A stretch of DNA of 30,530 nucleotides, taken from positions 1 through 30,530 of the IMG/VR virus record IMGVR_UViG_3300037041_001193. The stretch is one strand, 5' to 3'. Source of the stretch: a virus. The notes beneath the pieces were generated by a model. That model was not told where the DNA came from. It did not search any database and saw only the letters and a program-made list of their open reading frames with translations. Below are positions 13,588 to 30,530 of this stretch, piece after piece; the first letter of the stretch is position 1; the number at the start of each line of letters is the position of its first letter. The position numbers were made by a program, and so were the translations under genes.

Positions 13588-16500
13588 ATGCCAATCGCAC
13601 GCTTCCAAATGCCCGACGGGCGTATAGCCCGGTTTGAAGTCCCTGAAGGGACTAGCCCAGAAGAAGCGCAAAGATTGATGGAGGCGGCAGCGGGCGACAT
13701 ACCCGCCCCCAAAACAGCCCCTTTCTCCGCAGGAGATGTAGCCAAGAGTTTTGGGCAGGGTGTTCTTGGTGCGGGGAAGGCATTAACGGACGTTTTCGGG
13801 GCAGACAACAGTACGTCGCAATTCTTGGACGCAGGCTCGCAGGCGCTACAGGCGTCAAAAACACAAGCTACACGCGACGAAGCGTTGCGCCACCAGCAAC
13901 GCATGCAGGCCGCAGAGCGAACCGGCAGCGTAAAGGAAGAGGCGAAAGCAGCCCTTCAGAATTTCCTAGAGGCCCCCCTGCAGACAACTGCGCAAGGCGT
14001 GGGCTCCATAGCCCCCTTCTTGATACCTGTTGCCGGACAGAAGGCCCTCGCTCTACGCATAGGCGCTGCCCCCGCAGCAGCCGCAGTGCGGGCGGCACAA
14101 ACAGCCATTGGCGCCGGTATGGGCGCGGGCTCCGTCAAAGGTGCTATCTACGACGCGGTTTACGCGCAAGCCCTGAAAGACGGGGACAGCCCGGTTGTTG
14201 CAGAGCGCAAAGCCGCAGAGGCACAGACATACGCTAAAAACCCTGAGCAAATCGCATTAGGTACGGGTCTAGGCGCGGCAGCGGGCGCTACAGGTGTTGA
14301 GAAGTTACTTACGCGCGGCGGCGCAAAGAACCTAGCGCCCGGCATGGCGCGGCGTGTGGGCACGGCGGTGGCTACCGAGATGGGCCCGGAGATGCTGCAG
14401 GGTGGCCAAGAGCGCCTAGCCGCGAACTTAGCGCTGCAAAAAGAAGGATATGACACGCCTACATGGCAGGGTGTCGCTGGGCAGGCAGTACAGGAAGGCT
14501 TGACTGCGGGTGTTTCTGCCGCACCGATAGCCGCCGCACGCTCCCCTAGAGCATACTTGGCTGAACAAGAGCTGCAAAAACGCATACAAGACGCGAAAGC
14601 ACAGCAGGCCCAACAGGAACAAGAGGCCGCAGCACAGCAGGCCAAGCTACAAGACCCGGCGTACGCCGCACAAGTCGCTCAAGAATACCAAGCCGCCGAG
14701 GCGCAGTTCGCGCAGCTCAAAGCCGCTGCCAAGGTCGGCAAAGACGCCAGCATGGCGGACAAGCTGCAGGCCGAGCAGGCCCAAGCGCAGGTCAAGACTT
14801 TCGAGACCGAGGTGCTACGCCCCAAGGCCGAGGCGTACCTGCAGGTCAAGCCATTGCTGGACGCACAGCAAGCACAAGCCCAACAGGAACAAGAGGCCGC
14901 CGCTCAGAAAGCCCAACAGGAACAAGAGGCCGCCGCTCAGAAAGCCCGAGAAGACGCAATACCACGCGACTTACTAGGCGACACTGTACAGGAGCCCGTG
15001 GCGGCGGTAGCGCCGCCTATGGACACGGAGGCCGAGGCACGGACGCTGCGTGCGCACATTGAAAATTTCAACCGTAAAAGACTTGCTGCGGCAGCGCAGG
15101 GGGACGTTGCGGGTATTCGCGCAGCAGACGAGGCCATCAAGGGCGTAGAGCAACAACTTACCGAACTAGGTTTCGTGGAAGGCAAAGCCCCCCGCGCTAA
15201 CCAAGCCGCACTACTAGACAAGGTAAACGAGCTGAGAGAGGCACTGGCGGTTAATGCCGAAGACGGCGATCACGCCGCTATAACGCGCAATGCCAAGCAA
15301 CTAGAGAAGCTCCAAAAACAACTTGACGCGGGTATCCTTAGCGAACAGAACCTACGTCGAGAGGAGGCGGACAGTGCGCAGCGCACTGCGGAACTTGCGC
15401 AGGATATGGCGGGTGGGGTCGCCCCGGCACGAGAGCGTAGAGAACGTGTCGTCGCAGAAGAAGCGGCGCTACGCAGGATCGCGAGTGAAAAACCGAGGTA
15501 TGCTGGTGAGGCTCGACAAGAGCGTGTAACGCAGTTGGAAGTGGAGGGCATGGAGCGCGCGGCGCTGCCCTACGGCACAACCGAACAACGCACCCTATTT
15601 ACGGAAGAGCAGCCCGAAGGCGTACGCCCGGCAGAACAGACGAAGCAGGCCCAGCTACAGGCACTGGCGCTGCAGCTACAAGCCGCGCGGCGCGCGTATA
15701 AGGCTGACCCCAACAACACCCAAGCCCGCAAGCAGGTAGACTCGCTGATAGAGCAGATGCGCGCCATCAAGAGCAAGCCCGGTATGGACGAGGACAGGCC
15801 CGCACCAAAAGGTAAATTGACGGCCCCGGTGGCCACAGACCTTGCGGGCACGCGTCTTCCAGAAACTCTACCCACCGCCCAGAAGGCACCCGACACGGAG
15901 CGCACGCTAGCCCCGGGGCAGGCCACGGAGAAGTCGATCCGCGCCCAGATAGCACAGGCCAAGCAAACAGGCCGCGCACCGAGCATTCTGGCCCCTGTCG
16001 AAGAAAGTCTCGGCGCTCTCAGCAACGCCAAAGCACTCGGGGATGTTGCGGAATTACTACACCGTAACCGTATCGGGCAGGACTACTCCGAAGTCGAGAC
16101 GCGCATCAAAGAGAAGCTGGCTTCGTTGGAGCAAGGTAAACGTTCGGACGAGGTGCCACAAGGTGACATGTTTCCAGACACCGAACTGCAGGGCGTCATT
16201 TTTGACACGCCCGAAGCGTTTCAGCAGTTCCTAGCTAGCGATGCCCTCAACGAGTCCCGCAAGGCCGTAGGGCTGGCGCTGCAGACATCTGCCCGGGCGT
16301 ACAAGACAGTGGCCCCCCTAGAAGCCAAAGCCGCAGAGCTGCGGGAGTCTATCGGCACGCTGCAGACCATGCTGGCCGCGACGAAGCGCGTGGGGGCAGA
16401 GCGTGTGGAAGCCGCGATGGCGGCGCACGACAAGGCAGTTGAGCGTATCAAGGCGCAAGAGAAGGCGTTGGACGTACAGCTACAGCCGCTACAGGCGGCG

Positions 16501-19500
16501 TATATCAAGGCTCAGTTAGCGCTATCTAAAGCTGCGGACACGTTGGCCGGGGTGCTGAACAGTATTGCCAAAAATACCGCCAAGTTCAATAGTGACATAG
16601 ACCTTCAAACACTGGCCGCAGAAACTGCCCAAGCCCAAGATGCACACGCAGCTATGCTGCGCCGCGCCGCCAACGGCGGTAAAGTATCCAGCGAAGAGTC
16701 CGCCAAGCTATACAACGCCTCCGTCGCCGCCATAAACGCACACCGTAGCGGTCTGGAGCAATACCTGAAGACCGGCAACAAGATACAGGAGCGCAGCATT
16801 CTTGCGTTCCTCAACCGGGACATGGACTTTATGCTGCGCCTGCGCGACGCGGAGCAGTCCGTAGAGCGGGCCAACGAGGGGCTTAACACTGCTAGAGAGC
16901 AGCTAGACGCCGCAGACAAAGAGATACGCAACAGCGTGGACTATCTGGCGGAGCAGCGTGTCAATAAGCGCAACGAAGCAAACGCTCGGGGCGTCATAAC
17001 CCGCGCCAAGGCCACCGCAGCGCGCAACACAGACAGGGTTGGTACCGAACTACAGGCCCGTGACGACGAGCGCGCGGCGCTGGACACCGAGATTCGCAAC
17101 ACACTAGCCGAGGTTGAGAAAGCGCGCGACATCCGCATAGCAGCTCCGCTGGGGGAAACGCAAGCCCAAAGAGAAGCACAAGACGCGCAAGCGCGCATAG
17201 CAGAGCAGGAGCGTCTGGAACGTCTCCGAGCTATCCCCGGCACCGCAGTCTCTTTTGACGACATGCGCAAAGCTATGGACTTGGTGGAGCGCATGCCCGA
17301 GCGCATTCGCACACTGGACGCCGCAGCCAAAGACGAGACGCTTTCCGCGCCAGCGCGCAACAAAGCCAAGTACGAGGCCCGCGCAATGCGCGAAGAAGCC
17401 AAGGTAGCTTTTGGCCTGCTGTCGCGTGACGGTGCGCTCAACGCCGGGGCCAAGGAGGAGTTGGCAGCGCGTATCTCCGAGGTGGAGCAGAAGATAGGCG
17501 ACAAACAAAAAGCCGTACTGGAGCCGGGCAAGTCCAAGAGCACTATTGCGTCTCGCCGCAAAGAACTTACCGATCTGCGCTCCGCGCGCAGGGAGCTGCT
17601 GCGCCTACAGGGCCTTACCCAACAACGCGCCAAGAAGACCGAGATACTGACCCCGGCGCAACGCGCGGAAGAAGCCCAAGACAACGAAAATCGCCTAACA
17701 CTGGAGCGCGGGATTAACGCCGAGACTATCGGCACCCAAGGCACGCTCCCACCCCGTAAGATAGGCCCGGTAATAAAGCCCGTGCTGGGCGGCAAGACGA
17801 CCCAAGGCGGCAAAGTGCGTGGTGTCTCTGGCCCGCAGGCTGTCAAATTGGCCAAGGCGGACACCGCACAAGAGCAGGCCATGCTGGAGCTGTCAAAGAT
17901 AGAAGACCTCCAAGAGAAAGCCCAAGCCAAGCTAGACGAGGCGGAGGCCAACGGGGACGAGGCGGGTATTGAAAAGTATACAGGTTTCATGGCGCGACTG
18001 GACAAGGCACACGCCGCTGCCGAGCGGGCGTTGGAGAAATCATCACGCACAGCGCGTGCAGTCACTGACGATAGCGCTCCATCCAAGGCGGACAGGGCTT
18101 TCCGCACCTCCACCGACATGACTCCCGAAGTGTCCGAAGCCGTGGCCGACGGGCGCATTCTTGACGCCGCAGACATGCTCATCAAGGCAGGGTACCCACT
18201 CGCCGCGAGTGTGCGCCCGCTGGTGTTGCGAACCAAAATATCGGTGAACCCGGACATACGCGACAACGCCGGTAACGAAGTGGCGGGCATGTATTTCCCA
18301 GAGACGAACGAAATTGTTATGCGCCCCGACGCGTACATGGAAGACGTGATGCACGAGCTGTACCATGCGGCTACCGACAGCGTGTTGCTGGCAGACCCCG
18401 CTACGCTTACCCCCGAGCAGGCCGCAGCGCGAAAAGGACTAGAGGGCATGCAGCGCCAAGTCGCTGCCAGTAAAGCCTTTGCTAACGAAGAGATACCCAA
18501 TGTGCGTGAGTTTGTAGCCGAGGCGCGTACTAACCCCGAGTTTCAGGCCAAGCTGGACAAGTACGGTCTATGGGACAAGCTAAAGAACTTCGTGCGCCGC
18601 ATGTTCGGCATGCCGCAAAAGCCCCCAACACCAACTTCCAAGCAGGTGGCTGACCTCGTTGACAAGATCATGATGCCCTCGCGCCGCATGCAAGGTTCCG
18701 GCACGCCCAGTGCGCAGCGTACAACCGGCTCTGCCAAAGACGTGGTAGACCGTATCGTGGCCAAGGACAAGCCTTGGTGGAGCGCGCTAAGAGAAAACCT
18801 TTCGGGCCTCGCTTTTGAGACACAGATGGTGGATCGCTTCGCCGGTTTCGAGCGTTTGTCCCGGGTAATGGAGCCGCTGAAAGGCTCCCAGATGATGTAC
18901 TACCTGCGCATGTATGACCAACGCCAGCACTTCCTGTCGGTGGCTGCGGCCAACGGCGTGCCCCAGCGCGTAGAAAAGACCCGGGCGGACGGCAAAAGAG
19001 AGTACATGATCGAGAGCGTCAAAGGCGCGAACCTCAAGGGTATCGCGGACACGCTGGCCAAGGCACCCATTGCCGACAAAGACTACGCTACCCGGTTGTT
19101 CACCGGCTACATGGCGGCTATCCGCGCCAAGAGTAAAGGCATCGAGACCCTGAACTTCGGCGGGAGCGTTACACAGGCCGATCTGGACATGATCGCTCAA
19201 GAGGTGCAGAGCACCCCGGGGCTAAAAGCTATTTTTGAAGACGCGCGCAGCCAGTACAACGAGTACAACCGCAACCTGATAAAGCTGTTGGAGCAGAGCG
19301 GTGCGGTGAGCAAAGACGTTGGCGCGAAGCTGGTTAAGGAAGACGACTACATCCCGTACTACCGGGATCGCAATGGCGTGGCCGAGCTGCTGATCGGCAG
19401 TGAGTCCCCTATCCGCATCGGTAACATGAAGGAGCAGCCGCACCTGCAAGAGCTGGTGGGCGGCGATAGGCCTATTTTGGATTTCACCACCAGCGCGGTG

Positions 19501-21243
19501 CAAAACACCAGCATGATTCTGGACATGGCCTTGAACAACATCGCTACCAAGAACGCGGCCTACGAACTGCAGAACATGGGCATGGCCGACATAGGTAGTG
19601 GGCACGATGTCAAGGGCAACACTATCGTCAAGTTCTATGACAACGGGGCAGAGAAGTTTGCCCGCGTGGACACGCCCGATAGCATCCCGGCCGACCTGTT
19701 GGTAAAGGGCATGGCAGGTATCCCGACACAGCTTTCTGGCGTGGTGCGCCTCTTGGCCATGCCCGCGCAGCTACTGCGCAAGGCCGTCACTATCAGTCCA
19801 GTGTACGCCGCTAGGCAGGTTTTCCGTGACTCTCTTGGCGCGGCGTTGGGCAGCGGAGCAAACATAGTCCCCGTGTACAGCGCGGTAAAAGAGATCAACG
19901 CCAAGAACAAAGAGATACTGAACAACCGAGGCATCACTGGCGGGCAGGTGTTCACAGGCACCTCTGAGGATATGTCGATGGTGTTGCGCGATGTCACGGC
20001 CGGTAAGTCCGGCTGGCTGAACGCGCTCGGTAAGCTAGAAGCCATGTCGATGGGGGCCGACGCCCTCACCCGGCGCGCGCAGTACGGGAGCTACATCAAG
20101 CAAGGCCTGTCCGAGATGGAGGCCACTCTGCAGACGTTGGAGTCCATGAACTTCAGCAAGCGCGGCGCGTCGCCTAGCATCCACATGGCCAACGCCATGA
20201 TCCCCTTCTTTAACGCGCAGATTCAGTCCCTCAATGTGCTGTACAAGTCCTTCACCGGCAACATGCCCAAAGACGAGCGCCTGAACATCAAGGGCAAATT
20301 GATTGCCCGTGGCACGCTTCTAGCTGCCGCCAGCTTGGCGTACGCAGCGGCTATGGAGGACGACGAAGCCTATAAGAACGCACTGCCCGAGCAGAAGTAC
20401 GGTAACTGGTTTGTACGCGTGCCGGGATTGGAAGAGTCCGTGCGTGTACCGGTTCCGTTCGAGCTGGGATACATCTTCAAGGCTGTGCCCGAGGCGCTGT
20501 ATCGGAGCATGACCGACAAGCACGGTAGCGACGAGGCCGTCAAGGCTTTCAGCACCATCCTACGCAACACCATCCCCGGCGGTAGCAGCTACGGCTTGCC
20601 ACAGGCTATTAAACCGTTGATCGAAGTCGGCACCGGCAAGTCCTTGTTTACGGGCCGAGACATCCTGTCCCGTTCCGAGCAGAGCATGGAAAAGCCGTTT
20701 CAGTTCCGCGAGAACACAACGCAACTAGCTAGGGAAGCGGGCCAGCTTACCGGGCAGTCTCCCATCATGCTGGAGCAGATACTTAATGGGTACACCGGCG
20801 GCGTGGGGATGTTTGTGCTGGCTACGGTGGATTCGCTCATGCCCAGCAACGATAGTCCAGAAAAGGCGGCGCGGCGGTTGTCCTCACGCCCAATGATCGG
20901 CGGTATCTTCCAGCCAAACGACGCTGGCGGAATCATTAACGACACCTACGAGAAAATGGGCGAGTTCACCGCGTTCAAGAAAACGGTTGATGGGCTCTTA
21001 GAAAAGGGCGAGCGGGCGCAGGCCATGCAGCTTCTGGAAGCGCGCGCTAAAGAGTACGCTGCAGCGGATGTGGCGGGGGCTTTCACACAGAAAATGGGGC
21101 AGCTATCGAAGGCCGAGACCGCTATCCGGGCGTCCAACAGAACCCCCGAAGAGAAACGCCGCATGCTGGACAACATACGCCAGTACAAAATCCAGACTGC
21201 GGCGGCGTTCCGCGAGGTGTATGGGAAAGTCAAAGGCGAGTGA
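13588..21243 (+). CDS. Giant internal virion / polyvalent-like protein with HExxH peptidase motif (2551 aa)
   Basis: The largest gene in the window. The N-terminus (ARFQMPDGRIARFEVPEGTSPEEAQ) is a short beta motif seen in phage internal proteins. A hydrophobic Ala/Gly-rich zone at about 120-220 may insert in membranes. Residues about 330-460 and 880-1500 are long charged coiled coils with repeats of QQEQEAAAQ. Around residue 1589 is MEDVMHELYHAATDS, an HExxH zinc metallopeptidase signature (H1589, E1590, H1593) preceded by a typical edge strand (GMYFPETNEIVMRPD). The C-terminal 700 residues have DDYIPYYRDR (about 1918) and GNWFVRVPG-EESVRVPVPFELGYIFK (about 2272-2297), resembling domains of polyvalent phage/plasmid proteins (LPD38-like). 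A multi-functional ejected protein is inferred. Confidence 0.8.
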   Translation: MPIARFQMPDGRIARFEVPEGTSPEEAQRLMEAAAGDIPAPKTAPFSAGDVAKSFGQGVLGAGKALTDVFGADNSTSQFLDAGSQALQASKTQATRDEALRHQQRMQAAERTGSVKEEAKAALQNFLEAPLQTTAQGVGSIAPFLIPVAGQKALALRIGAAPAAAAVRAAQTAIGAGMGAGSVKGAIYDAVYAQALKDGDSPVVAERKAAEAQTYAKNPEQIALGTGLGAAAGATGVEKLLTRGGAKNLAPGMARRVGTAVATEMGPEMLQGGQERLAANLALQKEGYDTPTWQGVAGQAVQEGLTAGVSAAPIAAARSPRAYLAEQELQKRIQDAKAQQAQQEQEAAAQQAKLQDPAYAAQVAQEYQAAEAQFAQLKAAAKVGKDASMADKLQAEQAQAQVKTFETEVLRPKAEAYLQVKPLLDAQQAQAQQEQEAAAQKAQQEQEAAAQKAREDAIPRDLLGDTVQEPVAAVAPPMDTEAEARTLRAHIENFNRKRLAAAAQGDVAGIRAADEAIKGVEQQLTELGFVEGKAPRANQAALLDKVNELREALAVNAEDGDHAAITRNAKQLEKLQKQLDAGILSEQNLRREEADSAQRTAELAQDMAGGVAPARERRERVVAEEAALRRIASEKPRYAGEARQERVTQLEVEGMERAALPYGTTEQRTLFTEEQPEGVRPAEQTKQAQLQALALQLQAARRAYKADPNNTQARKQVDSLIEQMRAIKSKPGMDEDRPAPKGKLTAPVATDLAGTRLPETLPTAQKAPDTERTLAPGQATEKSIRAQIAQAKQTGRAPSILAPVEESLGALSNAKALGDVAELLHRNRIGQDYSEVETRIKEKLASLEQGKRSDEVPQGDMFPDTELQGVIFDTPEAFQQFLASDALNESRKAVGLALQTSARAYKTVAPLEAKAAELRESIGTLQTMLAATKRVGAERVEAAMAAHDKAVERIKAQEKALDVQLQPLQAAYIKAQLALSKAADTLAGVLNSIAKNTAKFNSDIDLQTLAAETAQAQDAHAAMLRRAANGGKVSSEESAKLYNASVAAINAHRSGLEQYLKTGNKIQERSILAFLNRDMDFMLRLRDAEQSVERANEGLNTAREQLDAADKEIRNSVDYLAEQRVNKRNEANARGVITRAKATAARNTDRVGTELQARDDERAALDTEIRNTLAEVEKARDIRIAAPLGETQAQREAQDAQARIAEQERLERLRAIPGTAVSFDDMRKAMDLVERMPERIRTLDAAAKDETLSAPARNKAKYEARAMREEAKVAFGLLSRDGALNAGAKEELAARISEVEQKIGDKQKAVLEPGKSKSTIASRRKELTDLRSARRELLRLQGLTQQRAKKTEILTPAQRAEEAQDNENRLTLERGINAETIGTQGTLPPRKIGPVIKPVLGGKTTQGGKVRGVSGPQAVKLAKADTAQEQAMLELSKIEDLQEKAQAKLDEAEANGDEAGIEKYTGFMARLDKAHAAAERALEKSSRTARAVTDDSAPSKADRAFRTSTDMTPEVSEAVADGRILDAADMLIKAGYPLAASVRPLVLRTKISVNPDIRDNAGNEVAGMYFPETNEIVMRPDAYMEDVMHELYHAATDSVLLADPATLTPEQAAARKGLEGMQRQVAASKAFANEEIPNVREFVAEARTNPEFQAKLDKYGLWDKLKNFVRRMFGMPQKPPTPTSKQVADLVDKIMMPSRRMQGSGTPSAQRTTGSAKDVVDRIVAKDKPWWSALRENLSGLAFETQMVDRFAGFERLSRVMEPLKGSQMMYYLRMYDQRQHFLSVAAANGVPQRVEKTRADGKREYMIESVKGANLKGIADTLAKAPIADKDYATRLFTGYMAAIRAKSKGIETLNFGGSVTQADLDMIAQEVQSTPGLKAIFEDARSQYNEYNRNLIKLLEQSGAVSKDVGAKLVKEDDYIPYYRDRNGVAELLIGSESPIRIGNMKEQPHLQELVGGDRPILDFTTSAVQNTSMILDMALNNIATKNAAYELQNMGMADIGSGHDVKGNTIVKFYDNGAEKFARVDTPDSIPADLLVKGMAGIPTQLSGVVRLLAMPAQLLRKAVTISPVYAARQVFRDSLGAALGSGANIVPVYSAVKEINAKNKEILNNRGITGGQVFTGTSEDMSMVLRDVTAGKSGWLNALGKLEAMSMGADALTRRAQYGSYIKQGLSEMEATLQTLESMNFSKRGASPSIHMANAMIPFFNAQIQSLNVLYKSFTGNMPKDERLNIKGKLIARGTLLAAASLAYAAAMEDDEAYKNALPEQKYGNWFVRVPGLEESVRVPVPFELGYIFKAVPEALYRSMTDKHGSDEAVKAFSTILRNTIPGGSSYGLPQAIKPLIEVGTGKSLFTGRDILSRSEQSMEKPFQFRENTTQLAREAGQLTGQSPIMLEQILNGYTGGVGMFVLATVDSLMPSNDSPEKAARRLSSRPMIGGIFQPNDAGGIINDTYEKMGEFTAFKKTVDGLLEKGERAQAMQLLEARAKEYAAADVAGAFTQKMGQLSKAETAIRASNRTPEEKRRMLDNIRQYKIQTAAAFREVYGKVKGE
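14608..14943 (+). repeat. In-frame 33-bp coiled-coil repeats (three copies)
   Basis: Two adjacent identical 33-base units at 14878-14910 and 14911-14943 encode AQQEQEAAAQK twice. A diverged copy at 14608-14640 encodes AQQEQEAAAQQ. All are in the frame of the giant protein, so this is a coiled-coil expansion and not an array. Confidence 0.85.
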
Positions 21244-27817: not shown

Positions 27818-28087
27818 CTACTTTGCGTTGGGCACCTTGTACCCGGAAGCCTTGCGCCAACCACGGTTTTTCTTGGCGCTCTCGACCTTTAGGTTCTTGG
27901 GGTCGGTTGAGCCCCCGTTGTCCAAGGCCTTGATGTGGGCTACGTCCTTGCCGTCGCCCCTCTTCACTTTGCCTGCGCGCATCATCTGCGCCCGAGCTAG
28001 GTTGTTGTCTTCGCGTCGGTTCACGATGTCTGGGCGGGCGTTGTAGGCCTTCTGATAGGCCAGCTTGGCCGGGGATGATTTAGGCAT
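27818..28087 (-). CDS. Small HNH endonuclease-like protein (89 aa)
   Basis: After a basic N-terminus (KLAYQKAYNARPDIVNRRED) comes RAGKVKRGDGKDVAHIKALDNGGS and PKNLKVESAKKNRG, the beta-beta-alpha-metal arrangement of small phage HNH nucleases: H50-51 region His, then Asn in GGSTDPKNL and a closing KKNRG. The first His is preceded by Ala (VAH) where Asp-His is common, which may lower or alter activity. It begins two bases after the stop of the Cas4-like gene and is in line with the replication operon. Such proteins nick or cut DNA; a packaging or recombination role is possible. It is distinct from the HNH gene inside the intein. Confidence 0.78.
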   Translation of the reverse strand: MPKSSPAKLAYQKAYNARPDIVNRREDNNLARAQMMRAGKVKRGDGKDVAHIKALDNGGSTDPKNLKVESAKKNRGWRKASGYKVPNAK

Positions 28088-28089
28088 GC

Positions 28090-28752
28090 TTAACTTCTTC
28101 CATTAAAACTGCACGTCAGTACTTCGCAGTGTTTTCGGCAAAGGCCCGATTGCTTGGGGTTCCACACGTTGTGGTATATCGAGGCGTCTAGTTTAGCAAT
28201 TCTTTCACGCCAGCGCCACCACAACTGCGCTTCTTGATCGCGCTCCACTTTGTACTTCTGCACCGTGCCCTTAAGCACGAACAGCAGGCCCCCGGTAATG
28301 GTGCGTACGTGGGGGAAGTGTTTGAAGATCATGAGCGACATGAGCATGAGCTGGTCGGTGTCGGGGTACTTGTCGCTGCCGCTCTTGTAGTCGAACACCC
28401 GGGCGGTGAAGTTGTCGTCGTCCACAATCACCAAGTCCGCGATACCGTGGCACCAGTAGTCCGGGTCTTTGAAGTCGCATGGCTCAAGCGTTTCCTTCAC
28501 GCCCATCTCCAGCTCGCAGAACTTACGTCCGGGCATGGCGACTAGGTTGTCTAGCATCGGCTTTAGGAACTCGAAACCCTTGTCCAGCGCCTTGCCATCT
28601 CGGATATATAACTCCGCCTGCTCGTGCAGTTGGGTACCGTACAGCGTAGCGGTGGTGTCTTCCCGGGGCCACAGCTTGAGTATCTTGGTCTCGTGGTACT
28701 TGCGCCCGCAGTTTTCGTACGTCTTGATAGCTGAGTATGAGTGCTGTGCCAT
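28090..28752 (-). CDS. Cas4/RecB-like PD-(D/E)XK nuclease, possible Fe-S protein (220 aa)
   Basis: The nuclease core is visible: His43 in LYGTQLHEQAE, Glu80/82 in KFCELEMGV, Asp106 in HGIADLVIV and D121-x-K123 in VFDYKSGSDKYP, followed by QLMLMSLMIF. One Cys near the start (C15 in YENCGRKYH) and three near the end (C205, C209, C214 in LCRKHCEVLTC) match the split four-Cys iron-sulfur pattern of Cas4 and AddB nucleases. Cas4-like enzymes of this kind resect DNA ends and are common in phage replication modules. The gene begins in a TAATG overlap with the small HExxH gene, so the two are coupled. Family call is from motifs. Confidence 0.82.
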   Translation of the reverse strand: MAQHSYSAIKTYENCGRKYHETKILKLWPREDTTATLYGTQLHEQAELYIRDGKALDKGFEFLKPMLDNLVAMPGRKFCELEMGVKETLEPCDFKDPDYWCHGIADLVIVDDDNFTARVFDYKSGSDKYPDTDQLMLMSLMIFKHFPHVRTITGGLLFVLKGTVQKYKVERDQEAQLWWRWRERIAKLDASIYHNVWNPKQSGLCRKHCEVLTCSFNGRS

Positions 28753-29027
28753 TAAAACTCCGCTGTGTAAATGACTTGGGTAAGCCGTTTGCTGAATGAT
28801 GTGACGAACTCCTCGTCGGCCCAGCGCGGGTCTTTCATGTCGTACAGTATGCCGTGGGTGACCTCGTGCCAGAAACTCTCGGTCATGTCTTTGGGGGCAC
28901 GCACCTCTATGCGGATAGTCTCATACCGTGGATAGCACATCCCGTAAGTCCCTTTAGGTAGATTGAAGTTGTCTATTACCACCCTCCATGCACGCTCACC
29001 TATCTTAAAGCTCTTTGGTATTTCCAT
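28752..29027 (-). CDS. Small HExxH metallopeptidase-like protein (91 aa)
   Basis: The sequence has a short N-terminal sheet (FKIGERAWRVVID), a central ETIRIEVRAP strand and the helix FWHEVTHGILYDM carrying HExxH (H54, E55, H58); Glu/Asp residues around 71-74 (ADEEF) could be the third metal ligand. Similar small proteins occur widely in phages as predicted zinc peptidases without known substrate. It shares the GGAGAAAGAAA leader with two other genes of the arm and is the first gene after the polymerase. At under 100 residues it is short for an active protease, so a binding or processing role on another phage protein is possible but unproven. Confidence 0.72.
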   Translation of the reverse strand: MEIPKSFKIGERAWRVVIDNFNLPKGTYGMCYPRYETIRIEVRAPKDMTESFWHEVTHGILYDMKDPRWADEEFVTSFSKRLTQVIYTAEF

Positions 29028-29042
29028 TTTCTTTCTCCTTGG

Positions 29043-30530
29043 TTAGTTCTTCGCAAGCCCGTAACGCTTGTGCACTCCGCCGTCTGCATTGAGCGGGATA
29101 CCCGGCATCCATTTGGGCACCACCACCATCTGCTGCAGCATCCACTTGTACGCGGGCTGCGCTTCTGGCTCCGGTACTAGACTGATACCCTCGTCGTGCA
29201 CTGTACCCAGCACCCGGTACTCTTTGTCGATACGCAGCAGGCCGTCCGACATGACGATACGCGCGGTACCCTGTGTGCAGTTGTGGACTGCAAATGTACC
29301 GGACACACCGCGAACAATGAAACGATTACGGGGGCCGCAGTCTACGATGTCGTATACAGCTTTTTCTTTCCGTTCCCCAAATCCGGTTTCATTTTCAGCT
29401 TGGACACCGGCCATCCGTGCTGTAGTCTGTAGTAGATCGTCGAACGACTTATACCCGTCTGTTCGGCAAGCTTCGGGACGTTCACCGCGCGTATTGTGTT
29501 GCGCGTGTTTTGTGCCTGCTCCGTACATGTGGCCCAGTGACAGTTGTTCGGAGAATACCCCCGGTCGTTGTTGCGCCGCTCCAGTGTCAACCCCGGCGCG
29601 TAGGTAGATTGCATGTCTGCCGAAAAGTTCTCGAAACTGTCGCGCCATCGTACGCACACTGTTATGCCCCTTGCCCCGTAGTTCTTGTATGCAGGCTCCC
29701 ATTCTTTGTAGCAGCGGTTGCGCATGTTTCGCCAAACTATGTATAGTGGATGTCCCGACATTCCGTGCGTCGTATTGGCCTGTCCGATAAGCTGTCGCGT
29801 TAGGCATCCGCAGTTCTGCATACGGCCTTTCTTCGCTTCCTTCTGTAAGTCGGACGTTTGCTTGGCGCAGGATTTTCCACAATCGCACAGCATCAGCCAC
29901 CGCCAATTGCCTTTCACAGACTGCAAGGGCTTCACTGCTGTCAAAATACCGTACCTTTTCCCGGTTATGTCCTTGAAGTTGTGATGCGTTTTTCCAGCCT
30001 GCATAAGTAAGTACCTCGTGATCTGGTGTCATATAAACACCGTCTACTGTAACACATGTTTGAACTCCGTTAAATGATAAACCTGCATGTGCTACAAAAT
30101 CTACGCCATCAAAAATGGCCATTTCTTTCGACACCTGTTCTATAGGTACCCACCCCGCAGAAGTAAGTACATCGGTTCCTTCGGCTATACAGTTGTTGCA
30201 TATTTTACCGGGGTACAGCTTCACACGTTTCTTGCCGTCAGCGTAGGTATACACGACACGTTTCTTCTTGTCCTCGGGGTCGATGTGCGCCTTCAGGTCA
30301 GGGTATCGCAGCGCCATGCCGTTGGTCATGATGATCTCGCCCTTGCGGAACAGCAGCACGTCCTTGTGGTTGTACTCCTCGCCGCCCACCAAGCTACGCT
30401 CCAGCAGGCTACCCAGCAAAGACCAGAAGTCTGTCACGGGGCTCGCTGCACTGCGGTACTTCTCGATGATGGCCTTGGCCGCTAGGCAGTGCAGTAACAG
30501 CTCCTCTTCGGTGCATGTATGCGGTATCTC
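29043..30530 (-). CDS. Family A DNA polymerase, C-terminal part, interrupted by an intein (5' partial)
   Basis: The frame is open to the end of the window (upstream residues EIPHTCTEEELLLHCLAAKA), so the gene continues outside; the GTG at 30437 is not the true start. After removing the intein, the extein reads PGKICNN|CTQGTARIVMSDGLLRI, which aligns with the N-x-x-x-QGTAA helix of bacterial Pol I, followed by the catalytic motif C GTVHDEGISLVPE and the family ending (PKWMPGIPLNADGG and HKRYGLA). This is the replicative polymerase of the phage. It can be active only after protein splicing because the intein splits the palm/fingers helix. The exonuclease domain, if any, lies outside the window. 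Confidence 0.9.
   Translation of the reverse strand, partial: EIPHTCTEEELLLHCLAAKAIIEKYRSAASPVTDFWSLLGSLLERSLVGGEEYNHKDVLLFRKGEIIMTNGMALRYPDLKAHIDPEDKKKRVVYTYADGKKRVKLYPGKICNNCIAEGTDVLTSAGWVPIEQVSKEMAIFDGVDFVAHAGLSFNGVQTCVTVDGVYMTPDHEVLTYAGWKNASQLQGHNREKVRYFDSSEALAVCERQLAVADAVRLWKILRQANVRLTEGSEERPYAELRMPNATAYRTGQYDARNVGTSTIHSLAKHAQPLLQRMGACIQELRGKGHNSVRTMARQFRELFGRHAIYLRAGVDTGAAQQRPGVFSEQLSLGHMYGAGTKHAQHNTRGERPEACRTDGYKSFDDLLQTTARMAGVQAENETGFGERKEKAVYDIVDCGPRNRFIVRGVSGTFAVHNCTQGTARIVMSDGLLRIDKEYRVLGTVHDEGISLVPEPEAQPAYKWMLQQMVVVPKWMPGIPLNADGGVHKRYGLAKN
29342..30004 (-). CDS. HNH homing-endonuclease-like gene nested out of frame in the intein (220 aa)
   Basis: The gene is on the same strand as the polymerase but in the +1 frame, wholly inside the intein. 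The N-terminus has DITGKRYGILTAVKP and two CxC pairs (C40/C42 in LMLCDCGKSC, C65/C67 in QNCGCL), a zinc-like domain common in phage HNH proteins. Residues 79-131 (THGMSGHPLYIVWRNMRNRC, YGARGITVCVRW) and 139-159 (LTLERRNNDRGYSPNNCHWAT) match the phage homing HNH family usually written SLDRIDNDGNY.P.NCRWA. The C-terminus is a helix-turn-helix (PKLAEQTGISRSTIYYRL). GAGG lies 9 bases before the ATG. It probably cuts intein-free polymerase genes and drives homing; that role is inferred. Confidence 0.88.
   Translation of the reverse strand: MQAGKTHHNFKDITGKRYGILTAVKPLQSVKGNWRWLMLCDCGKSCAKQTSDLQKEAKKGRMQNCGCLTRQLIGQANTTHGMSGHPLYIVWRNMRNRCYKEWEPAYKNYGARGITVCVRWRDSFENFSADMQSTYAPGLTLERRNNDRGYSPNNCHWATCTEQAQNTRNTIRAVNVPKLAEQTGISRSTIYYRLQHGWPVSKLKMKPDLGNGKKKLYTTS
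30014..30017 (-). promoter_or_regulatory. Ribosome binding site of the nested HNH gene
   Basis: GAGG, 9 bases before the ATG at 30004, is formed by the Glu and Val codons of intein block B (His-Glu-Val-Leu-Thr-Tyr), so a splicing motif and a translation signal share the same bases. Confidence 0.6.

What the first reader, a model, noticed from the sequence alone, without database searches (positions are those of the whole stretch)
29342..30004. Homing endonuclease gene overprinted in a second frame inside an intein
The polymerase intein (29280-30191) has no endonuclease in its own frame. The same DNA carries a complete 220-codon HNH gene in the +1 frame of the same strand. Both frames stay open for 663 bases. 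The HNH frame has strong family motifs (CxC...CxC, LERRNNDRGYSPNNCHWA, an HTH tail) and its own ATG with GAGG. Normally inteins carry their endonuclease as an in-frame domain; here the splicing protein and mobility enzyme would be two products of overlapping frames, so the endonuclease need not be spliced out or made at polymerase levels. I know of no described system of this kind but cannot search the literature.
Basis: partly seen in the sequence, partly recalled or inferred. Interest (0 to 1): 0.95.

Follow-up and report, generated by a model that had tools for sequence, protein, structure and literature searches.

The report
Intein with overprinted homing-endonuclease gene
Inside a phage DNA-polymerase gene, one stretch of DNA is read in two frames, one giving a self-splicing protein insert and the other a DNA-cutting enzyme that probably spreads the insert; the same double use recurs in more than 150 other phage and bacterial sequences.

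Summary
A class-1-type intein (30191-29280, minus strand) sits in a family A polymerase gene. Over 663 of its bases a complete 220-codon HNH gene (30004-29342) runs in the +1 frame. It is not an error or chance. 157 of 158 loci with HNH framed by the two splicing blocks in that frame have the intein frame stop-free; 79 of 79 HNH loci without blocks do not. In 95 distinct cases 0 stops are seen where synonymous shuffling predicts 617. The HNH frame is under purifying selection (omega 0.22-0.30). The intein reading of the same DNA is neutral (0.96), apart from staying open, and is modelled as disordered. The splicing blocks are conserved (0.22-0.27). HNH start, stop and Shine-Dalgarno site lie inside splicing blocks B and F. 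A 91%-identical empty-site allele exists, and the window's intein is far more similar to that of L002 than the flanking gene is, as homing predicts. The layout arose more than once (other frame, other HNH subtypes, a helicase) and has HNH-less and fractured derivatives. Prior work covers out-of-frame HNH without splicing (ShiLan domain) and one passing remark on a terminase. Expression, cleavage and splicing are untested.

The parts
30192..30530 (-). N-extein: family A DNA polymerase, cut by the window end
   Evidence: open frame; full-length 989-aa homologue in L002; PHROG polymerase hits on the C-extein
29982..30191 (-). Intein N-terminal splicing part, blocks A and B (Cys1, TPDH); residues 1-70
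   Evidence: pLDDT above 90; block conservation; dN/dS 0.27 in homologue pairs
30013..30017 (-). GAGGT Shine-Dalgarno-like site of the HNH gene, embedded in block B (codons of DHEVLT)
   Evidence: sequence; across 61 loci stronger than synonymous expectation, p 1.6e-5
29342..30004 (-). HNH endonuclease gene, 220 codons, +1 relative to the intein frame; start in block B, TAG stop in block F
   Evidence: omega 0.22-0.30
29804..29887 (-). CxCG...CGC region of the HNH protein (residues 40-67), probably zinc-binding
   Evidence: invariant cysteines in 45 homologues; zinc binding is inference
29525..29767 (-). HNH-type nuclease core (residues 80-160; HGMS ... YGARGITVC ... LERRNNDRGYSPNNCHW)
   Evidence: invariant columns; weak sequence match of residues 133-186 to I-HmuI 1u3e
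29420..29479 (-). Helix-turn-helix tail of the HNH protein (residues 176-195)
   Evidence: Pfam HTH matches below cut-off; helices in the model
29379..29909 (-). Intein-frame reading of the HNH DNA (residues 95-271): linker polypeptide, modelled as disordered
   Evidence: pLDDT below 50; neutral omega 0.96; 0 stops
29280..29369 (-). Intein C-terminal splicing part, blocks F and G, ending His-Asn | Cys+1
   Evidence: pLDDT 79-92; dN/dS 0.22; structural matches to inteins
29043..29279 (-). C-extein: polymerase motif (HDE) and C-terminus
   Evidence: empty-site homologue L255 reads KICNN|VTQGTSRIV

Best explanation
This is a mobile intein whose homing endonuclease is encoded not as an in-frame domain but as a separate, overprinted gene. 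An HNH gene occupies the usual place of an endonuclease (between splicing blocks B and F) but in the +1 frame. Ribosomes on the polymerase mRNA make (a) a polymerase precursor with a two-part Hint splicing fold bridged by a ~180-residue meaningless linker, which is spliced out, and (b), by internal initiation at an ATG or GTG placed within block B behind a Shine-Dalgarno site, a free HNH endonuclease. The HNH protein cuts intein-free polymerase alleles, and repair copies in the intein with the HNH gene. Shown here by computation: the architecture, its conservation, selection on both parts, the neutral stop-free linker, an empty-site allele and horizontal movement of the intein. Inferred: splicing, internal initiation, target cleavage.
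For: Same architecture and same +1 offset in 157 loci classified by block HMMs irrespective of stops. 0 versus 616.6 expected stops in 95 distinct nested genes, with no depletion in the third frame (11.5 versus 11.1) and little in 78 free-standing HNH genes (1129 versus 1250). HNH omega 0.30 (bootstrap 0.26-0.34), linker omega 0.96 (0.77-1.24), splicing blocks 0.27 and 0.22. Intein model folded at residues 1-70 and 275-304 and disordered at 95-271; its PDB matches are inteins. HNH model mean pLDDT 82. In one scan long linkers always hold a long other-frame ORF while the short-linker inteins lack the HNH. SD signal. Empty site in L255; window versus L002 fourfold sites differ at 2/47 in the splicing blocks but 38/86 in flanking extein, p 3.5e-7. 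HNH loss with intein retained: L011, L176, L208.
Against: No expression, splicing or cleavage data. The SD signal is modest and partly dictated by the conserved block B peptide, and loci are related. Foldseek gave no significant PDB match for the HNH model, and I-HmuI similarity is weak by sequence. The homing signature rests on one pair plus one empty allele; loss of the intein from L255 by recombination would leave a similar downstream patch.
Confidence: 0.85

Rival explanations
1. The HNH frame is produced as a fusion to the N-intein by +1 ribosomal frameshifting within block B rather than by internal initiation.
For: In-phase +1 offset and a junction right at block B; no expression data exclude it.
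Against: 61 of the 65 distinct loci examined keep an ATG, GTG or TTG at the HNH start, with SD-like sites stronger than synonymous expectation; the start position shifts among lineages together with its own SD. No slippery site was sought systematically.
Confidence: 0.08
2. Sequencing or assembly frameshifts put an ordinary in-frame HNH domain out of frame.
For: The window is a single metagenomic virus record.
Against: Same layout in over 150 independent contigs and in cultured phages; two compensating errors would be needed at the same places each time.
Confidence: 0.005
3. The HNH ORF is a chance or decaying by-product and the intein-frame polypeptide is the functional product.
For: The intein frame is always open.
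Against: HNH frame omega 0.22-0.30, linker omega about 1; linker disordered; HNH homologous to free-standing endonucleases.
Confidence: 0.01
4. The insertion is removed as RNA (a self-splicing intron carrying an HNH gene) and the intein blocks are decoys.
For: Phage HNH genes are common in group I introns (general knowledge).
Against: No Rfam match in 28700-30530; polymerase frame open throughout; splicing-block residues and fold conserved.
Confidence: 0.01
5. The HNH is a past resident that no longer homes; the overlap persists by descent and the HNH now has another role.
For: HNH-broken copies exist (L124, L198), as do deletion derivatives.
Against: Strong purifying selection on HNH in recent pairs and recent transfer between the window and L002 lineages.
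Confidence: 0.07

Closest known systems
Canonical full-length inteins with in-frame LAGLIDADG or HNH endonuclease domain (e.g. PI-SceI)
   Same: Hint splicing blocks A, B, F, G; endonuclease information between blocks B and F; homing logic
   Different: The endonuclease is a separate gene product in another frame; the in-frame linker is a non-conserved disordered by-product
ShiLan domain and Pacc40 insertion (PMC11855218, 2025)
   Same: Out-of-frame HNH gene in a phage gene whose own frame stays open
   Different: No intein or intron splicing domain and no detectable RBS there; here true splicing blocks are present and the RBS lies in block B
Brucellaphage terminase insertion (PMC4422536, 2015)
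   Same: Authors call it a putative intein-encoded HNH located out of frame in the large terminase gene
   Different: One sentence without analysis of splicing blocks, selection or distribution; the sequence could not be retrieved here
Fractured genes: split inteins with a free-standing endonuclease gene between the halves (Dassa et al. 2009, known to me by recall and as a reference in PMC3653736)
   Same: Endonuclease as its own gene within an intein; L083 and the first inteins of L003 and L005 look like this
   Different: There the host gene is broken into two ORFs and needs trans-splicing; here host and intein remain one ORF
Hamiltonella phage APSE-1 P45/P46
   Same: Same family: polymerase intein with overlapping HNH ORF, already annotated as two CDS
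   Different: Annotation only, with P46 called shorter than the open HNH frame

Membership tests
Intein (class-1-like) | Splicing residues: Cys/Ser at position 1, block B TxxH, penultimate His, terminal Asn, +1 Cys/Ser/Thr | tested here: met
   Cys1, T55-H58, H303, N304, +1 Cys; these intein residues invariant in 45 homologues
Intein (class-1-like) | Hint fold | tested here: met
   Model splicing parts match solved inteins, probability about 1.0, though Foldseek E-values are 0.0016 or larger; profile match to PI-MtuI E 3.5e-6
Intein (class-1-like) | Protein splicing activity | not testable with these tools
   needs experiment
HNH endonuclease | Homology to HNH endonucleases | tested here: met
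   phrog_374, 3377, 2081 and 953 in all 45 members
HNH endonuclease | Curated Pfam HNH domain or structural match to a solved HNH enzyme | tested here: inconclusive
   No Pfam HNH domain; I-HmuI E 0.016; no Foldseek match
Homing endonuclease | Empty target alleles and horizontal movement | tested here: met
   Empty site L255; intein more similar than flanks
Homing endonuclease | Cleavage of the empty site | not testable with these tools
   needs experiment
Full-length intein with in-frame endonuclease domain | Endonuclease domain in the intein reading frame | tested here: not met
   No domain found in the intein frame of 45 homologues; the HNH is in +1
ShiLan-type element | No splicing domain | tested here: not met
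   Splicing blocks present
Fractured gene (split intein) | Host gene in two ORFs | tested here: not met
   Single open frame in the window and in 157 loci; met only in L083 and the first inteins of L003 and L005

The most novel reading that the evidence does not exclude
Overprinted inteins are a general, recurrent class of mobile element. Mini-inteins have repeatedly captured HNH genes out of frame, which uncouples endonuclease dosage and folding from host-protein splicing. The splicing blocks double as the endonuclease's start and stop signals, and the class is an intermediate on the path to fractured, split-intein genes.
Probability: 0.6. Interest if true: 0.85.

Novelty: new variant of a known kind. 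Interest (0 to 1): 0.8.

Why it matters
Inteins are taught as splicing domain plus in-frame endonuclease domain. Here one stretch of DNA encodes both as two overlapping genes, and this is apparently usual among these phage polymerase inteins: in one scan 67 of 79 measurable loci have it, and 3 more have a long other-frame ORF in place of it. It accounts for a set of inteins with large linkers of no recognisable domain, affects annotation of well-known phages (APSE, Jerseyvirus), offers a route from mini-inteins to split inteins, and gives a natural measuring device: a polypeptide selected only to contain no stop codons.

Tried and rejected
Group I intron or other RNA (no Rfam match). Assembly error (excluded by independent loci). 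A functional linker protein (neutral omega, disordered model). Pfam names for intein or HNH (nothing above cut-offs). Foldseek of the HNH model (no significant match). Two attempts to fetch the brucellaphage terminase locus failed (no record; one search returned Burkholderia phage KL1). The careful HNH tree did not finish; only the quick tree is used. Treating every 0-stop locus as nested would be circular, so loci were reclassified by block HMMs. An early pair list contained duplicate contigs; the deduplicated set is. A Jerseyvirus dN/dS run kept only one usable pair because of start-codon length differences.

Full report
OBSERVATION. On the minus strand the polymerase frame is open from 30530 to 29043 and contains a 304-aa intein (30191-29280) with all splicing motifs: Cys1, TPDH in block B, block F VYDIVDCGPRNRFIV, terminal His-Asn and +1 Cys. 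The HNH ORF is 30004-29342, 220 aa, one base on from the intein frame. GAGGT lies 8 nt before its ATG and is part of the codons for the conserved peptide DHEVLT; the TAG stop lies within the DNA of block F. The HNH protein matches phage HNH families (phrog_374, E 2.6e-55). The intein frame matches only the short splicing stretch of an endonuclease family (phrog_93) and a second family of unknown function (phrog_26005); 45 intein-frame homologues have no Pfam domain.

IT RECURS. A search with the intein finds ten relatives in viral contigs, nine of them full-length and mostly 35-41% identical, L002 at 89%. Cultured phages carry the same thing: Hamiltonella phages APSE-1 to -7 (P45/P46), Shewanella phage SFCi1 and Caulobacter phages RW, RLK, KcrB and GB2A. 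Scans with the HNH and splicing-block alignments give 240 loci with an HNH homologue. Splicing blocks were detected by HMMs independently of stops. 159 loci have both blocks around or next to the HNH; of 158 with the blocks in frame -1 to the HNH, 157 have no stop in that frame. The exception is L083. The remaining locus, L176, has the blocks in the other frame, which is then the open one. Two further stop-free loci were cut off or matched one block only. All 79 loci without blocks have stops in frame -1. The locus counts include some repeated fetches of one contig; the distinct-gene counts below do not.

NOT CHANCE. Shuffling synonymous codons within each HNH gene predicts 616.6 stops in the intein frame over 95 distinct nested genes; 0 are observed. 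The third frame shows no depletion (11.5 observed, 11.1 expected per gene). In 78 free-standing genes 1129 are observed against 1250 expected. Caveat: related loci are not independent, but the genes compared are mostly deeply diverged.

SELECTION. Over 18 close pairs, changes were sorted by effect in each frame. HNH omega is 0.30 (bootstrap 0.26-0.34) where the intein codon changes and 0.22 where it does not. The intein-frame linker has omega 0.96 (0.77-1.24) where HNH is unchanged. The splicing blocks on either side have dN/dS 0.27 and 0.22 in the intein frame. So the HNH and the splicing parts are constrained, while the linker reading is free apart from stops. In the window/L002 pair alone, 28.5 of 40 changes are silent in HNH but not in the linker.

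STRUCTURE. The intein model (45-sequence alignment) is confident at residues 1-70 and 275-304 and below pLDDT 50 from 95 to 271, almost exactly the overprinted part. Its best PDB matches are inteins (Mtu RecA, Ssp DnaB, gp41-1, Npu DnaE), at probability about 1.0 but E-values of 0.0016 or larger. The HNH model is good locally (mean pLDDT 82, pTM 0.49) without a significant PDB match; only weak similarity to I-HmuI was found by sequence.

EXPRESSION SIGNALS. In 61 distinct loci the anti-SD pairing energy before the HNH start averages -7.3 against -5.8 kcal/mol for synonymous recodings of the intein (Wilcoxon p 1.6e-5). Four further loci have no start in the window examined. Lineages use different start positions, each with its own nearby SD drawn from a different conserved peptide. 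This supports internal initiation but is modest and does not prove it.

MOBILITY. L255 is a 91%-identical polymerase without the intein, reading KICNN|VTQGTSRIV where the window reads KICNN|C...HN|CTQGTARIV. Along the gene the window is mostly nearer to L255 than to L002, except just downstream of the insertion (about 140 nt, and again around 260-380 nt), where it is nearer to L002. At fourfold sites the window and L002 differ at 2 of 47 in the splicing blocks but 38 of 86 in the flanking extein (p 3.5e-7). The intein therefore moved between these lineages more recently than the polymerases diverged. A patch brought into L255 by intein loss could mimic the downstream signal.

VARIANTS. Of 79 measurable inteins in one scan, 67 carry the HNH homologue, 3 more have a long linker with another long other-frame ORF (L236, L237, L241), and 9 have short linkers and no HNH. 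L011, L176 (second intein) and L208 look like deletion derivatives; L176 keeps an 83-codon remnant of the HNH ends. L124 and L198 have a stop in HNH with the intein frame open. L083, inside the nested clade on the quick tree, is fractured: N-intein ORF, HNH, C-intein ORF, with 22 stops in the former intein frame. This suggests overprinted inteins can turn into fractured ones. The +1 polymerase family forms one group on the quick tree, support 82. Apparently independent inventions: Jerseyvirus, Pseudomonas MR14, Vibrio 97.13 and the first L176 intein have the HNH in the other frame (+2); Gardnerella AB1 and Streptococcus Javan255 carry another HNH subtype in +1; L236 has a 345-codon HNH frame over a helicase intein. 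About 163 records, nearly all Salmonella phages, have the Jerseyvirus HNH at 80% identity or more; the overlap itself was checked in seven.

LITERATURE. Ten full-text searches found: the ShiLan domain (PMC11855218), an out-of-frame HNH insertion in phage methylases with no splicing domain and no RBS; a genome announcement that repeats it (PMC12613952); and one sentence on a brucellaphage terminase (PMC4422536). The held library lacks most subscription papers, so a description elsewhere cannot be excluded. Dassa et al. 2009 on fractured genes is known to me by recall and could not be read.

VERDICT. I file it as a new variant of a known kind: a mobile intein with an overprinted endonuclease gene. 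Splicing, translation start and cleavage remain inferred.

Noticed in passing
L003:1-1093 and L005:1250-2300: A second polymerase intein, upstream of the overprinted one, is split in two ORFs with a different HNH gene between the halves (fractured-gene layout) in the same polymerase; L004 lacks it.
   Followed up: partly
L083:2700-3932: A member of the overprinted clade whose polymerase is fractured into two ORFs around the HNH gene, with 22 stops in the former intein frame.
   Followed up: partly
L236:3001-4776: Helicase intein with a 345-codon HNH reading frame (repeated HTH-like C-terminal units) overlapping in +1.
   Followed up: partly
L247-L250, L335-L339 and first intein of L176: Jerseyvirus, Pseudomonas MR14, Vibrio 97.13 and L176 polymerase inteins at another site carry an overprinted HNH in the other (+2) frame.
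   Followed up: partly
L029, L047, L058, L037 and others: The intein family sits at several insertion points within a few codons of each other in the polymerase (GGK|C, GGKL|C, EN|C, ENV|C), with the same HNH frame offset.
   Followed up: no
window 27818-28087 (-): Small ORF (89 aa) resembling a free-standing HNH protein (DVAHIKALDNGGSTDPKNL), judged by eye.
   Followed up: no
L237 (IMGVR_UViG_3300049927_000029): One contig appears to carry two overprinted inteins.
   Followed up: no
window 13588-21243 (+): Very long phage ORF (2551 aa), a possible polyvalent or internal virion protein, judged by eye only.
   Followed up: no
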